IMG/VR virus record: IMGVR_UViG_3300029953_000081
Coordinates: 1 to 38,700 of that record
DNA length: 38,700 nt
DNA from: a virus
Direction: 5' to 3' (one strand)
The notes under the pieces were generated by a model. It was not told where the DNA came from, did not search any database, and was given only the letters and a program-made list of their open reading frames with translations. Below are positions 147 to 4,045 of this stretch, piece by piece. Position 1 is the stretch's first letter. The number at the start of each line of letters is the position of its first letter. A program made the translations under genes and the position numbers.

Positions 147-392
147 ATGACCAAGCGTGACAGGCTGGCGTACTTCCCCTTTGGGAATAGGAAGTTAGGT
201 ATTCCAGAAGTAGAGTTTAGGGCGCTTTATCGTGACTTCCTATTAACCACGGAATCGGGTGTTCCTCGCGAGGATTATGCCGAGGCGGTGGGGAGCGCCC
301 TTTTGGTTTTGAAAAATCATTATCCCGACTTTCGCCTAGACGAACTCGTATCTCTTGCTGAAGAAAATTCAGATAGTCACGGCAATACATGA
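147..392 (+). CDS. Hypothetical 81-residue protein
   Basis: The frame begins ATG at 147 behind a weak AGGT and encodes a balanced, soluble-looking protein (MTKRDRLAYFPFG...) with helical, acidic C-terminal half. I do not recognise the family. Its last 176 bases overlap the C-terminal coding region of the minus-strand gene at 217-837. That minus-strand gene has the better family resemblance, so this frame may be spurious; the 23-residue start lies outside the overlap. Both could be real as convergent overlapping phage genes. Confidence 0.38.
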   Translation: MTKRDRLAYFPFGNRKLGIPEVEFRALYRDFLLTTESGVPREDYAEAVGSALLVLKNHYPDFRLDELVSLAEENSDSHGNT

Positions 393-837
393 AATAGTTT
401 TCTTGATCGTCTAAAAGTTTAACGTCAACATGGAGCCAATCGAACGTCAAAATCTTTTGTTCCTTCTCATTTGCTAATTCTTCCAAATTCGTAAAAAACA
501 AACCCGCTTTAGAATGATCTGCCCAATGACAATGAGCGTACTGATTACGAATATTTTTACAGTGTTTCATGGACGTATAAACATTTTCGTATTCTGTTTT
601 TAGCCCAAACGTTATCATTGGATGTCTTAGGATTGCATCTGCTGTCTCAAGGCGATGCCCTTCGCTTCTAAGTCGGAAAATGGTTTTTATTCCTAATCCC
701 TCGTCTTTTATTCCTAGCTTCTCATTTAGTAAGACAGTGCCAACACAATATGCTAAAATAAACTCCAATTCGCCAAATCCGGCGAGTAGGCGTCCTATTG
801 TCAACGCCTCCAATGGGTAGCGTTCAAAGCAGGGCAT
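217..837 (-). CDS. Conserved hypothetical protein (MPCFxRYPLEALTIG type)
   Basis: About 206 residues from ATG 837, giving MPCFERYPLEALTIGRLL. The N-terminal block, a central RNQYAHCHW motif with preceding Cys, and a proline-rich tail (RSPPPRHNPREEHPIPWL) match, from memory, a family of uncharacterised proteins in rhizobia and related alphaproteobacteria; no function is known to me. An alternative ATG lies at 846 and the frame stays open to 960, but residues upstream of 846 look like shadow translation of the small plus-strand gene at 845. No membrane segment is convincing. The gene is divergent from 845-979 with the start codons almost touching, so its promoter must lie inside that gene. Confidence 0.7.
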   Translation of the reverse strand: MPCFERYPLEALTIGRLLAGFGELEFILAYCVGTVLLNEKLGIKDEGLGIKTIFRLRSEGHRLETADAILRHPMITFGLKTEYENVYTSMKHCKNIRNQYAHCHWADHSKAGLFFTNLEELANEKEQKILTFDWLHVDVKLLDDQENYFMYCRDYLNFLQQEIRVRLGESRDNDFSKPKGRSPPPRHNPREEHPIPWLIGSHDKAP

Positions 838-844
838 GATTGTC

Positions 845-979
845 ATGGTAGAACCCAAGAAACAAACCGATTGGTCACGCTTTGAGCGTGCCGTTGATAT
901 TGCGCTCAAGACGCCAGCCAAACACAAGCCAGCGATTCGCAAAAGCAAGAAAAAGACCACCCAAAAGAAGGCACGTTGA
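845..979 (+). CDS. Small basic hypothetical protein (44 aa)
   Basis: ATG 845 to TGA 979. The protein starts MVEPKKQTDWSRFERAVD and ends in a Lys/Arg-rich tail (KSKKKTTQKKAR). The segment FERAVDIALKTPAKHKP resembles short conserved proteins of alphaproteobacterial phages and genomes, with unknown role; the basic tail would suit nucleic acid binding, which is inference only. The upstream AGGGC is a modest ribosome binding site. Its start overlaps the 5' end of the divergent minus-strand gene. Confidence 0.6.
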   Translation: MVEPKKQTDWSRFERAVDIALKTPAKHKPAIRKSKKKTTQKKAR

Positions 980-1005
980 CTCTCTGCGTCGCTTTCCCCT
1001 AGATT
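976..1005 (+). promoter_or_regulatory. Possible sigma70-like promoter for the structured RNA
   Basis: TTGACT at 976-981 (5 of 6 to the -35 consensus), an 18-base spacer, and TAGATT at 1000-1005 (4 of 6 to -10). The predicted transcript would start near 1012, at the first hairpin of the structured region, and continue into the lipoprotein gene. The placement supports it; the -10 match is only fair. Confidence 0.4.
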
Positions 1006-1010
1006 AATCG

Positions 1011-1180
1011 CGTGCTGGCATTCGTCAGCGCGGGGCTTAGAAACCCTTATCCTTTGGCGGCTTGTGTAACCGTCTTTGCACTCCTCGACTATGGTCGGGG
1101 AGGCGCATGTGTATGTTCAGGTTCTTGCGAAAGTGAGAATTAAAGATATGCGCGACCTTCCCAAAGGATAGGTTTTCTAA
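1011..1180 (+). ncRNA. Candidate structured leader RNA or small RNA
   Basis: Hand folding of the plus strand gives nested helices. A leading hairpin pairs 1011-1017 with 1026-1032. A closing helix pairs 1037-1057 with 1161-1180 (about 19 pairs, one bulge, one mismatch). Inside it, P2 pairs 1081-1089 with 1094-1102 (UAUG loop); P3 pairs 1103-1110 with 1146-1153 and directly abuts P2; P3 carries a hairpin 1122-1128/1133-1139 capped by a GAAA tetraloop. At least five G-U pairs occur, which would be A-C mismatches on the other strand, so the plus strand is the RNA. No protein-coding frame explains the stretch 980-1209. I cannot assign it to a known family: it lacks tRNA features and the hammerhead core. 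Its position in front of a masked ribosome binding site suggests a cis-regulatory leader. Confidence 0.55.
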
Positions 1181-1203
1181 CTCCCCGATCACCAGTCAGG
1201 GAG
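1181..1203 (+). promoter_or_regulatory. Hairpin masking the lipoprotein ribosome binding site
   Basis: CTCCC at 1181-1185 is the exact complement of GGGAG at 1199-1203, which is part of the Shine-Dalgarno sequence AGGGAG (1198-1203) six bases before the ATG at 1210. The hairpin begins at the base after the closing helix of the structured RNA ends, the usual layout of an expression platform. Five pairs with a 13-base loop is only moderately stable. Confidence 0.45.
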
Positions 1204-1209
1204 ATAGAT

Positions 1210-1416
1210 ATGAACATGAAAAGCATAGCTGCATTCGCGTCACTTATTGTCTTAACGGGATGCGTCAACACCCAATATGCAAAATCAGTTGCTGTTACCA
1301 AGGATGCAAACGGCAAGGTTGTTCAGACAGTAGAGACTGAAGGCGTTGTTCAGCCTAACCAAAATGGCTGGCCTGTAAATTTTGAACACCTAAAGGGCGT
1401 ACAGCCGGGCAATTAG
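1210..1416 (+). CDS. Small lipoprotein, C-terminus altered by IS insertion
   Basis: A 68-residue protein with a type II signal: basic start (MNMKSIAAFAS), hydrophobic core and lipobox L15-T16-G17-C18, so it should be acylated at Cys18 and anchored in the envelope. The mature part is short and polar (NTQYAKSVAVTKDANGK...). The ribosome binding site AGGGAG is ideal. The last two codons and the stop (GGC AAT TAG) fall in the terminal inverted repeat of the neighbouring IS, so the original C-terminus was probably different. Possible roles are an outer-membrane spanin-type component, superinfection exclusion or a host-derived lipoprotein; none is proven. It faces the opposite way to the phage operon. 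Confidence 0.68.
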   Translation: MNMKSIAAFASLIVLTGCVNTQYAKSVAVTKDANGKVVQTVETEGVVQPNQNGWPVNFEHLKGVQPGN

Positions 1417-1419
1417 CAC
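1407..1419 (+). repeat. IS terminal inverted repeat, left
   Basis: GGGCAATTAGCAC matches the inward-read right end at 12 of 13 positions. It supplies the stop codon of the lipoprotein gene that enters the IS from the left. Confidence 0.8.
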
Positions 1420-1425
1420 TAGCCT

Positions 1426-2370
1426 TTAGACTTGCGCTTCACGAGTCCGCCGATAGGTCAAACGCTTGCCAACGATGCCATGTATGGACTTTTCCATGCG
1501 TTCGGCATCGTTGACGCCGCGCCCTTCACGCTCATTGTAGCGGTAATCAAACTCTGCAACATAACGTTTCAGATGTTGCTGCGAAACGTGATGAAAAGTG
1601 CCGACAATACCGCGCTTCAAAATTGAGAAATAATTCTCAACCGTGTTCGTATGCCAGAATTTATCCCTGACATATTCCCCTGCGCTGTGATTAACCGTGC
1701 CGTGCCCCGCAAAGTCACTTGTGACTGGTGGGTAAACCCTTGCATCGTCCGTCATCAAATAACTGCGTTTGTTAATGTGCTGTTCAAGAACGGGACGCAG
1801 CGTTTTTCCGCTGACTTCGGGGAGGTGCATAGAACGGACATTGCCATTACGTTCGACCAGTGAAACCACAGGGGCTTTGCCGACTGCTCCGCGCCCCGCG
1901 TTCAAACGCTTATTGGCATGTTTGTTCTTTTCCTTGCCGCCGACATAAGTCTCATCAATCTCAATAACCTTTCCGGTTCCACCCATAGGCGCAAGATCGG
2001 TATTGATAAGGGACTCGCGGATGCGATGACAAAGGAACCACGCCGTTTTCTTGCTGATGCCGAGCATGCGGCCAACTTGCAATGCGCTCATTCCCTTTTT
2101 GGAAGCCATCATGAGATGGGTTGCAGCCAGCCATTTGTTTAAGGGTATCTTGCTGCGCTCATAAAGCGTTCCAACCGTCACGGTGAACGGTTCGCGGCAG
2201 CTATTGCATTGATACAGTCCGGGGCGCGTGGTTTTGCCTTTCATAAGCGTTGCCTGACCGACTACGCCGCAATGAGGGCAGATTGCGCCATTAGGCCAAA
2301 TCCGTGCTTCGAGCCACACACGGGCTTTGTCTGCATCGTGAAAGATCGGATTGCTAAAATCGGTGGACAT
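1426..2370 (-). CDS. IS1595-family transposase
   Basis: 314 residues, full length for the family. The N-terminus holds a zinc ribbon (CPHC near 32-35 and CNSC near 54-57), then a helix-turn-helix-like region (SALQVGRMLGISKKTAWF). The ISXO2-like DDE domain follows: first Asp in EIDETYVGGKEK, second in MTDDARVY, and the conserved NTVENYFSILKRGIVGTFHH block with the third acidic residue. It cuts and joins the IS ends during transposition. ATG 2370 is preceded by GGAG eight bases away. Two devices may keep expression low: a dedicated promoter inside the right end and a leader hairpin. No frameshift or missing motif is seen, so it is likely active or recently active. Confidence 0.95.
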   Translation of the reverse strand: MSTDFSNPIFHDADKARVWLEARIWPNGAICPHCGVVGQATLMKGKTTRPGLYQCNSCREPFTVTVGTLYERSKIPLNKWLAATHLMMASKKGMSALQVGRMLGISKKTAWFLCHRIRESLINTDLAPMGGTGKVIEIDETYVGGKEKNKHANKRLNAGRGAVGKAPVVSLVERNGNVRSMHLPEVSGKTLRPVLEQHINKRSYLMTDDARVYPPVTSDFAGHGTVNHSAGEYVRDKFWHTNTVENYFSILKRGIVGTFHHVSQQHLKRYVAEFDYRYNEREGRGVNDAERMEKSIHGIVGKRLTYRRTREAQV

Positions 2371-2373
2371 GGC

Positions 2374-2400
2374 GAATCTCCAAGGTTTATAAGGAGATTC
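2374..2400 (-). promoter_or_regulatory. Leader hairpin masking the transposase ribosome binding site
   Basis: On the minus strand GAATCTCC (2400-2393) and GGAGATTC (2381-2374) are perfect 8-base inverted repeats with an 11-base loop; the 3' arm contains the GGAG ribosome binding site. The IS promoter would start transcription near 2390, after the 5' arm, so only transcripts reading in from the phage operon can form the hairpin. This matches the read-through protection known for IS10 and IS50. Confidence 0.65.
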
Positions 2401-2425
2401 TACATCTTGTGCCGTACTATGTCAA
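2397..2425 (-). promoter_or_regulatory. Transposase promoter
   Basis: Minus-strand TTGACA (2425-2420), a 17-base spacer and TAGAAT (2402-2397): the best sigma70-type promoter noticed in the window. The -35 box lies next to the right inverted repeat, as usual for IS elements, and the -10 overlaps the 5' arm of the leader hairpin. Confidence 0.75.
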
Positions 2426-2426
2426 G

Positions 2427-2439
2427 GTGATAATTGCCC
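2427..2439 (-). repeat. IS terminal inverted repeat, right
   Basis: Read inward it is GGGCAATTATCAC, 12 of 13 identical to the left end. It lies 29 bases past the stop of the endolysin gene. Confidence 0.8.
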
Positions 2440-3211: not shown

Positions 3212-3614
3212 CATACGCCCTCGCCTGCGCCCTCATCCGCGCATAATCAATCATTGCCCCAACCAGCGGTGAATCCGATGGCAAGGTTTCTAAATCAGCT
3301 TTCATGTTCTGCTGTTCGACAACTGACCACGCCTTAACGGAAATGCACGGATAAGCCACCCCATGATCGGCACATGACGCTAAAAACAGGCACAGGAACG
3401 CGATAGAGAGTTTTCCGTCCTGAAGTAGCCGCTCCATCGCCGTTTTGCTTGTGGGGGCGTCTGTGGCAGCCACAGCCTCCCTTTGCAGGGCTTCTGCCGT
3501 CGCCAGCGCGTCGTCGCCTTTAACTTCTGCCGCCCCAAGCTTCTCCTCCGTGCTTTCCCGGGATTTCAGGAAAACGCCGAACATATCCGCGAGGAGCGAC
3601 AGAAGCCAAGTCAT
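3204..3614 (-). CDS. Spanin-like protein with internal lipobox (possible gene fusion)
   Basis: 136 residues in two parts. The first 60 (hydrophobic TWLLSLLADMFGVFLK, then an Ala/Glu-rich helix ending TSKTAMERLLQDGK) look like the short lysis-associated proteins found in alphaproteobacterial phages. The second part starts with a signal-like stretch, KLSIAFLCLFLASC, a good lipobox (L-A-S-C near residue 81), followed by a small polar domain (HGVAYPCISVKAWSVVEQ...). In relatives I believe these are usually separate genes. Here one frame joins them; an internal ATG at 3437 could make the lipoprotein alone, though no strong ribosome binding site precedes it. Role in outer-membrane disruption is inferred. 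Confidence 0.65.
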   Translation of the reverse strand: MTWLLSLLADMFGVFLKSRESTEEKLGAAEVKGDDALATAEALQREAVAATDAPTSKTAMERLLQDGKLSIAFLCLFLASCADHGVAYPCISVKAWSVVEQQNMKADLETLPSDSPLVGAMIDYARMRAQARAYDE

Positions 3615-4045
3615 TAGACCGCCGGAGCAGAAGTTGCAGCCGCCGCAATTGCCGCAACCGTAGGCGCGTCACCTGCCGTCACTGTCGCATTTGCCACCTT
3701 GACCACTTGTAATGCCGCCTGAGTGGCCTGCAGGGCTTGTTGGGCGTCAATCGGCGCGTCCATGGTAGTCGTCGCGACAATTGCCGCCCCTACCGTAGCT
3801 GCAGCCGCGCCAAAGCCGCCAGAAAGCAAGAGCGGAGCCGAGGCAATAGCCGATTTAAGAGCCGCCTGACCGACCTGAGACGCCAAAGTTTCGATGAACT
3901 TTTTGACCGACGGCCAAACATCCGCATCGAATTTTGATGCAAGACCGTCAATAACGTCTACGGCATCGGTTTCCGCGCCAACAAAGAAGTCCTTGACGTG
4001 TTGGTAGAAAGTTTCAGAAGTCGCTATATTCGTCGTGTCAGTCAT
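3614..4045 (-). CDS. Ala-rich lysis-cassette protein, holin candidate
   Basis: 143 residues. An acidic N-terminal half (SETFYQHVKDFFVGAETDAV...) is followed by a hydrophobic Ala/Gly stretch (SAIASAPLLLSGGFGAAAAT and on, residues about 65-92) that could cross the membrane, and an Ala/Val-rich tail. A strong AAGGA precedes ATG 4045. The next gene starts in a TAATG overlap. Its place at the head of the lysis genes and its hydrophobic core make a holin role possible, but I recognise no established holin family and it could be a virion-associated protein. Confidence 0.6.
   Translation of the reverse strand: MTDTTNIATSETFYQHVKDFFVGAETDAVDVIDGLASKFDADVWPSVKKFIETLASQVGQAALKSAIASAPLLLSGGFGAAAATVGAAIVATTTMDAPIDAQQALQATQAALQVVKVANATVTAGDAPTVAAIAAAATSAPAV

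What the first reader, a model, noticed from the sequence alone, without database searches (positions are those of the whole stretch)
1011..1203. Riboswitch-like structured RNA ahead of a small lipoprotein gene
Directly seen: a closing helix of about 19 pairs (1037-1057 with 1161-1180), two abutting internal helices (1081-1102 and 1103-1153), a GAAA tetraloop (1129-1132), a leading hairpin, and immediately afterwards a hairpin that masks the Shine-Dalgarno of the 1210-1416 gene. At least five G-U pairs assign the structure to the plus strand. A fair promoter would start transcription at the first hairpin. The order promoter, aptamer-like domain, masking hairpin, gene is that of a riboswitch or other cis-regulatory RNA; a trans-acting small RNA is the alternative. 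I cannot match it to a known class.
Basis: partly seen in the sequence, partly recalled or inferred. Interest (0 to 1): 0.8.

Follow-up and report, generated by a model that had tools for sequence, protein, structure and literature searches.

The report
Phage leader RNA resembling sRNA-Xcc1
A temperate-phage genome carries, just ahead of a small lipoprotein gene, a folded RNA that is a distant relative of a known mobile-element RNA (sRNA-Xcc1) and has an extra upstream strand that can refold it, so it is probably a switchable regulator of the next gene rather than a metabolite-sensing riboswitch.

Summary
The structure is real: 1011-1210 folds at -86.4 kcal/mol (z -6.3, no shuffle as good), and the minus strand folds less well (-68.6). 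It is not an orphan. A pattern search found one homolog in a Mu-like phage (L226), ahead of an antirepressor-type gene. In this fold 30 of 31 pairs stand in both, with 8 double compensatory changes. It is the architecture of sRNA-Xcc1 (Rfam RF02221), the best but sub-threshold Rfam match of both. A model built only from the two phage RNAs finds a genuine sRNA-Xcc1 (E 5e-4 in 858 kb). Ribosome-site complementarity is suggestive only (Fisher 0.001-0.02). Best reading: a sRNA-Xcc1-like leader RNA that controls the next gene by alternative pairing, as phage C4 RNA does. A ligand riboswitch is not supported. Mechanism untested.

The parts
976..1005 (+). promoter-like site TTGACT-18-TAGATT, would start transcription near the first hairpin
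   Evidence: 9 of 12; 0.2 expected in shuffles. L226 has TTGACA about 40 nt upstream of its first hairpin (read) but no -10 was found there
1011..1032 (+). 5' hairpin, 9 bp
   Evidence: a hairpin stands at the same place in L226
1037..1057 (+). P1 5' strand: pairs with 1161-1180; target mimic / competitor strand
   Evidence: equivalent upstream strand in L226, L231, L236 with unrelated sequence (p .006/.010/.030; window .004)
1081..1102 (+). hairpin A, 9 bp; its 3' strand 1093-1102 is shared with P0
   Evidence: not shown to be conserved (Fisher .23)
1093..1102 (+). P0 5' strand (sRNA-Xcc1-like fold begins here)
1103..1153 (+). hairpin 1: outer stem 1103-1110/1146-1153, conserved internal loop GNAUGUYCA/AAAG (1111-1119, 1142-1145), inner stem 1120-1128/1133-1141, GAAA tetraloop 1129-1132
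   Evidence: same architecture in RF02221
1154..1174 (+). hairpin 2: GACCU/AGGUU with inner UCC/GGA
   Evidence: three double compensatory changes against L226
1161..1180 (+). P1 3' strand (hairpin-2 loop and 3' arm plus linker 1175-1180), pairs with 1037-1057 in the alternative state
1181..1190 (+). P0 3' strand; also 5' arm of the SD-masking hairpin B
1181..1203 (+). hairpin B masking the Shine-Dalgarno GGGAG (1199-1203)
   Evidence: RBS complementarity p .018 in the window
1210..1416 (+). 68-codon lipoprotein gene (lipobox LTGC), the next gene
   Evidence: 61% identity over 46 aa to an unannotated fragment in Caballeronia sp. M1242
1407..2439 (-). IS1595-family insertion sequence (transposase 1426-2370) directly behind the lipoprotein gene; inverted ends 1407-1419/2427-2439
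   Evidence: not part of the RNA

Best explanation
1011-1209 is a phage-encoded leader RNA whose 3' half (1093-1190) is a diverged relative of the mobile-element RNA sRNA-Xcc1. It can adopt two exclusive states. In the full-length transcript the upstream strand 1037-1057 pairs with hairpin 2 and the linker (helix P1), and the released 3' strand masks the Shine-Dalgarno of the lipoprotein gene in hairpin B. If the 5' part is removed or not made (mature sRNA-Xcc1 is about the size of the P0 domain that starts at 1093), the domain closes through P0 and the Shine-Dalgarno becomes easier to open. I think it works like the C4 RNA of phage P1: an RNA lying ahead of the gene it controls and acting on that gene's ribosome-binding site by short base pairing. 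Shown by computation: fold, strand, homology, compensatory changes, exclusivity of P1 and P0. Inferred: transcription, processing, direction of control, and a role in switching a lysogeny or host-modifying gene.
For: Fold strength and strand. Homolog in L226 found by a pattern on one hairpin but alike well beyond it: full-length match to a model of the window RNA, 25 bits, E 3.4e-6 in that locus; the other 40 pattern hits lack the shared loops. P0 fold: 30 of 31 pairs in both, 8 double compensatory changes, 1 of 20000 shuffles as good. RF02221 is the best Rfam match of both RNAs in the same register (22.7 bits, E .16; 19.1 bits, E .77). Reciprocal search: model R2 from the two phage RNAs finds the true sRNA-Xcc1 of L231 (57.4 bits to RF02221) at 26.8 bits, E 5e-4, among 858 kb. 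P1 strand upstream of all four RNAs, Fisher p 9e-6. P0 probability about 0 in all four full transcripts, and .92-1.0 in the trimmed forms of window, L226 and L231. In the window, trimming lowers the cost of opening the SD by 2-3 kcal/mol. RBS complementarity, Fisher .0014 for the last 26 nt. L226's next gene is a Bro-N antirepressor, the kind of gene C4 controls in P1 (PMC8201110). sRNA-Xcc1 lies upstream of symE in Xanthomonas cassettes (PMC12444791) and its mature form is about 88 nt (PMC2996969).
Against: Both RF02221 scores are far below the family's gathering score of 53. Only one close homolog and two true sRNA-Xcc1 loci could be compared; the P0 covariation rests on two sequences. The RBS test was made after seeing the sequences; the broader test gives Fisher .016 with the window alone at .42. 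The predicted effect of trimming is opposite in L236 (SD harder to open, P0 probability 0) and about absent in L231. Hairpin A is not conserved beyond chance. No transcript data.
Confidence: 0.6

Rival explanations
1. It is mainly a stand-alone trans-acting sRNA like published sRNA-Xcc1; its place before the lipoprotein gene is incidental and P1 only marks a precursor.
For: sRNA-Xcc1 is described as an independent RNA of about 88 nt (PMC2996969) with many copies in some genomes (PMC8780938, PMC12189769). Unrelated genes follow the four RNAs. In L231 a run of T follows P0, as a terminator would require.
Against: In the window and L226 the structured element ends within about 12 nt of the next start codon and no terminator-like site was found. 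RBS complementarity in L236 and the window. 11-nt repeats of the P1 strand before the next gene in L231 and L236 (0 of 300 shuffles each).
Confidence: 0.25
2. It is a true ligand-sensing riboswitch: the conserved internal loop of hairpin 1 is an aptamer, with P1/P0 as the switch and hairpin B as expression platform.
For: Order promoter, structured domain, SD-masking hairpin, gene; two exclusive states; a loop conserved in sequence (GNAUGUYCA/UAAAG) inside covarying stems.
Against: Downstream genes share no pathway; no Rfam riboswitch family matches even at E 10; the loop differs in sRNA-Xcc1 (AAUACAAU/AA), so it is not a strictly conserved binding site.
Confidence: 0.08
3. The resemblance to sRNA-Xcc1 is convergence on a simple three-helix shape; the window and L226 RNAs form a separate phage RNA family of unknown action.
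For: Scores below the gathering threshold; L236, a good RF02221 match, scores only 9.2 bits with model R2 although at the right place; no R2 hit in 379 genomes with strict filters.
Against: Best Rfam match of both RNAs is the same family in the same register; reciprocal hit on L231 at E 5e-4; P1 present upstream of both groups.
Confidence: 0.2
4. The fold is a DNA-level palindrome (att site, IS or mobile-element end) without RNA function.
For: An IS1595 element lies just behind the gene; the IS ends are inverted repeats.
Against: The IS ends are at about 1407 and 2439, outside the element; G-U pairs favour one strand by 18 kcal/mol; compensatory changes that use G-U pairs.
Confidence: 0.03

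Closest known systems
sRNA-Xcc1 (Rfam RF02221)
   Same: Order of elements: closing P0, hairpin with asymmetric internal loop and GNRA tetraloop, second hairpin, 6-nt linker, P0 3' strand; location in mobile DNA; upstream P1 strand also present at true members L231 and L236.
   Different: Scores 22.7 bits against a gathering score of 53; internal-loop sequence differs; hairpin B with the SD replaces the T-run; P1 and the 5' hairpin are not in the Rfam model.
C4 antisense RNA of phages P1 and P7 (Rfam RF01695)
   Same: Works-like comparison: a structured RNA upstream of a phage immunity gene that acts on the ribosome-binding site by short pairing; an antirepressor gene follows in L226 (PMC8201110; the C4 pairing details are from general knowledge).
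   Different: No match to the C4 model at E up to 10; RBS pairing in the window is statistically weak.
Translational riboswitches and RNA leaders with SD-masking hairpins
   Same: Two exclusive pairings and an SD hairpin before the start codon.
   Different: No conserved metabolic gene, no ligand evidence, no Rfam riboswitch match.

Membership tests
sRNA-Xcc1 (RF02221) | covariance-model score at or above the curated gathering score (53 bits) | tested here: not met
   22.7 bits window, 19.1 bits L226; by this rule it is not filed as a member, only as a relative
sRNA-Xcc1 (RF02221) | P0 + hairpin 1 (internal loop, GNRA tetraloop) + hairpin 2 + linker + P0' | tested here: met
   5'-trimmed window RNA folds exactly so
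sRNA-Xcc1 (RF02221) | reciprocal detection: a model of the phage RNAs finds true members | tested here: met
   L231 26.8 bits, E 5e-4 in 858 kb; but L236 only 9.2 bits, E .79
sRNA-Xcc1 (RF02221) | mature RNA of about 88 nt with 5' end at P0 | not testable with these tools
   no transcript data; published size in PMC2996969
C4 antisense RNA (RF01695) | match to the Rfam model | tested here: not met
   not listed at E up to 10
C4 antisense RNA (RF01695) | complementarity to the ribosome-binding site of the next gene | tested here: inconclusive
   window p .018 (RBS-proximal, post hoc) or .42 (broader); four loci together .0014 or .016
Riboswitch (ligand-binding) | conserved aptamer associated with genes of one pathway | tested here: not met
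   lipoprotein, Bro-N antirepressor and unrelated ORFs follow
Riboswitch (ligand-binding) | ligand-dependent refolding | not testable with these tools
   needs in-line probing or SHAPE

The most novel reading that the evidence does not exclude
sRNA-Xcc1, so far described as an 88-nt trans-acting sRNA, is in general the processed 3' half of a larger bistable leader element: an upstream strand (P1) competes with the next gene's ribosome site for the same hairpin-2/linker sequence, and phages use it like C4 to gate antirepressor, lipoprotein and other accessory genes.
Probability: 0.35. Interest if true: 0.65.

Novelty: new variant of a known kind. Interest (0 to 1): 0.5.

Why it matters
sRNA-Xcc1 is annotated in many mobile elements and is usually discussed as a virulence-linked trans-acting sRNA. 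A conserved upstream partner strand and complementarity to the neighbouring gene's ribosome site, both outside the Rfam model, suggest a local regulatory role that can be tested at once in existing loci such as the Xanthomonas symE cassettes, and that would tie these RNAs to phage immunity control of the C4 type.

Tried and rejected
Nucleotide search of phages and plasmids with the whole region: nothing relevant. A 16-mer of the P1 strand (34 hits) and a gapped P1 inverted repeat (11 hits): no homolog. Relatives of the lipoprotein and of the 217-960 protein in viral contigs: none. The only genome-contig hit for the lipoprotein (L170) reads antisense to a methyltransferase gene and is spurious. 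A single-sequence model R1 over 48 records and 93 loci: nothing significant. Near relatives of the phage (L082 to L084) do not carry the RNA in what is held. Stenotrophomonas phage YA1 (L229), the best DNA hit at E 9, lacks the conserved loop and scores 11.5 bits with R2: not accepted. L232 and L233 as RF02221 members: weak, not used. Hairpin A as a conserved element: not supported. Precise IS target-site duplication: none convincing. An early idea that the IS truncates the lipoprotein gene was dropped: the Caballeronia relative ends at the same place.

Full report
WHAT WAS CHECKED. The window is a 38.7-kb IMG/VR virus record of a podovirus-like phage: terminase, portal, head protease, major head protein, tail proteins, lysozyme and DnaB on the minus strand. 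A near-identical contig, L082, extends it past its right end with a RusA endonuclease, a Cro-like carph-isopro protein and a repressor-like ORF, so it is probably temperate. The finding lies at the left end, past the lysozyme and an IS1595 element, facing the other way from the phage genes.

The minus strand gives -68.6. It is the strongest fold for its G+C content among 1540 windows of both strands. A promoter-like site ends just before it. No Rfam family reaches its gathering score anywhere in the window.

FINDING A HOMOLOG. DNA, protein and single-sequence model searches failed. A gapped pattern on the hairpin 1103-1153 gave 41 viral loci. Forty are chance. One, L226:5412-5219 (-), matches the model of the window RNA over its full length (25 bits) and shares GGCGCATGTGnATGTyCA, TAAAGA and TCCC, most of it outside the pattern. 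L226 is Mu-like (MuB, GemA) and the RNA is followed directly by a Bro-N antirepressor-like gene. Its RNA also folds better than shuffles (z -4.5).

WHAT IT RESEMBLES. Searched separately, both RNAs have sRNA-Xcc1 (RF02221) as best Rfam match in the same register: 22.7 bits (E .16) and 19.1 bits (E .77), below the gathering score of 53. Aligning window and L226 on the P0 fold: 31 and 30 of 31 pairs form, 14 pairs vary, 8 with changes on both sides, 1 of 20000 shuffles as good. True members were then fetched from a bacterial genome: L231 (57.4 bits) and L236 (49.1 bits). They show the same order: P0, hairpin with internal loop and GNRA tetraloop, second hairpin, 6-nt linker, P0'. A model built only from window and L226 finds L231 with E 5e-4 in 858 kb and nothing else significant beyond its own two sequences. 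L236 is found at the right place but not significantly. I therefore call it a relative, not a filed member.

THE SECOND STATE. L226 has it with unrelated sequence, and so have L231 and L236 upstream of the annotated 87 nt. Against dinucleotide shuffles of the 130 nt upstream: p .004.006.010.030; Fisher 9e-6. In full transcripts P0 has probability near 0 in all four; starting at P0 it rises to .92.998 and 1.0 in window, L226 and L231, but stays 0 in L236, where the same sequence pairs with the next gene's ribosome site instead. Mature sRNA-Xcc1 is about 88 nt (PMC2996969), the size of the P0 domain, which is why processing is proposed.

THE NEXT GENE. In L231 and L236 the P1 strand's words (GCCTAGAAAAC, GCCTAAAACAC) recur before the next gene's start codon (11 nt each, 0 of 300 shuffles), and the SD regions GCCTACAGGAG and GGTACTAGGAG complement hairpin 2. 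In the window the SD GGGAGAUAGA complements UCUAACUCCC (p .018); in L226 CUCUAGGAG complements CCUAGAG (p .084). Together Fisher .0014 for the SD-proximal 26 nt.016 in the first, broader test where the window alone gave .42. This is suggestive and partly post hoc. The direction also differs: trimming opens the SD in the window by 2-3 kcal/mol and closes it in L236.

THE LIPOPROTEIN. The 68-aa product has a lipobox (LTGC) and one relative, an unannotated fragment without signal peptide in Caballeronia sp. M1242 (61% over 46 aa), ending at the same EHLKGVQ. So the gene is complete, the IS begins just behind it (about 1407), and no RNA precedes the Caballeronia fragment.

MECHANISM. Best-supported: a leader RNA with two exclusive states that controls translation of the adjacent gene, comparable in logic to C4 RNA ahead of the P1 ant operon (PMC8201110), and in line with sRNA-Xcc1 lying upstream of symE in Xanthomonas integrons (PMC12444791). 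Shown: fold, strand, homology, covariation of P0, recurrence of P1. Inferred: transcription, processing, direction, signal.

LIMITS. Two phage RNAs and two sRNA-Xcc1 loci are few. Hairpin A is not conserved beyond chance.

Noticed in passing
window 1407-2439: IS1595-family element with 13-nt ends GGGCAATTAgCAC/GTGaTAATTGCCC directly behind the lipoprotein stop codon; no clear target-site duplication.
   Followed up: partly
L184:6055-6192 (Caballeronia sp. M1242 plasmid NZ_CP071131.1, about 77018-77155): Unannotated, apparently decayed relative of the lipoprotein without signal peptide, downstream of a LysR gene.
   Followed up: yes
L231:1250-1660 and L236:1850-1420 (-): True sRNA-Xcc1 loci with 11-nt direct repeats (GCCTAGAAAAC / GCCTAAAACAC) before the RNA and again before the next gene's ribosome site.
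   Followed up: partly
L229:2965-3115 (Stenotrophomonas phage vB_SmaS_YA1, PV224507.1): Strong intergenic palindrome (GCGATGCGCATGG...GTGCGCATCGC) just before a start codon; not a homolog by model score.
   Followed up: partly
window 3451-3650, minus strand: Lowest folding energy of the window (-96.7 kcal/mol) inside the small ORFs upstream of the lysozyme, about equal to the RNA for its G+C content.
   Followed up: no
window 217-960, minus strand: ORF with the motif IRNQYAHCHW, HEPN-like by eye, no relative found in phages, plasmids or viral contigs.
   Followed up: partly
L082:1-4124: Extension of the same phage past the window's right end with a RusA endonuclease, a carph-isopro Cro-like protein and a repressor-like ORF: the phage is probably temperate.
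   Followed up: partly
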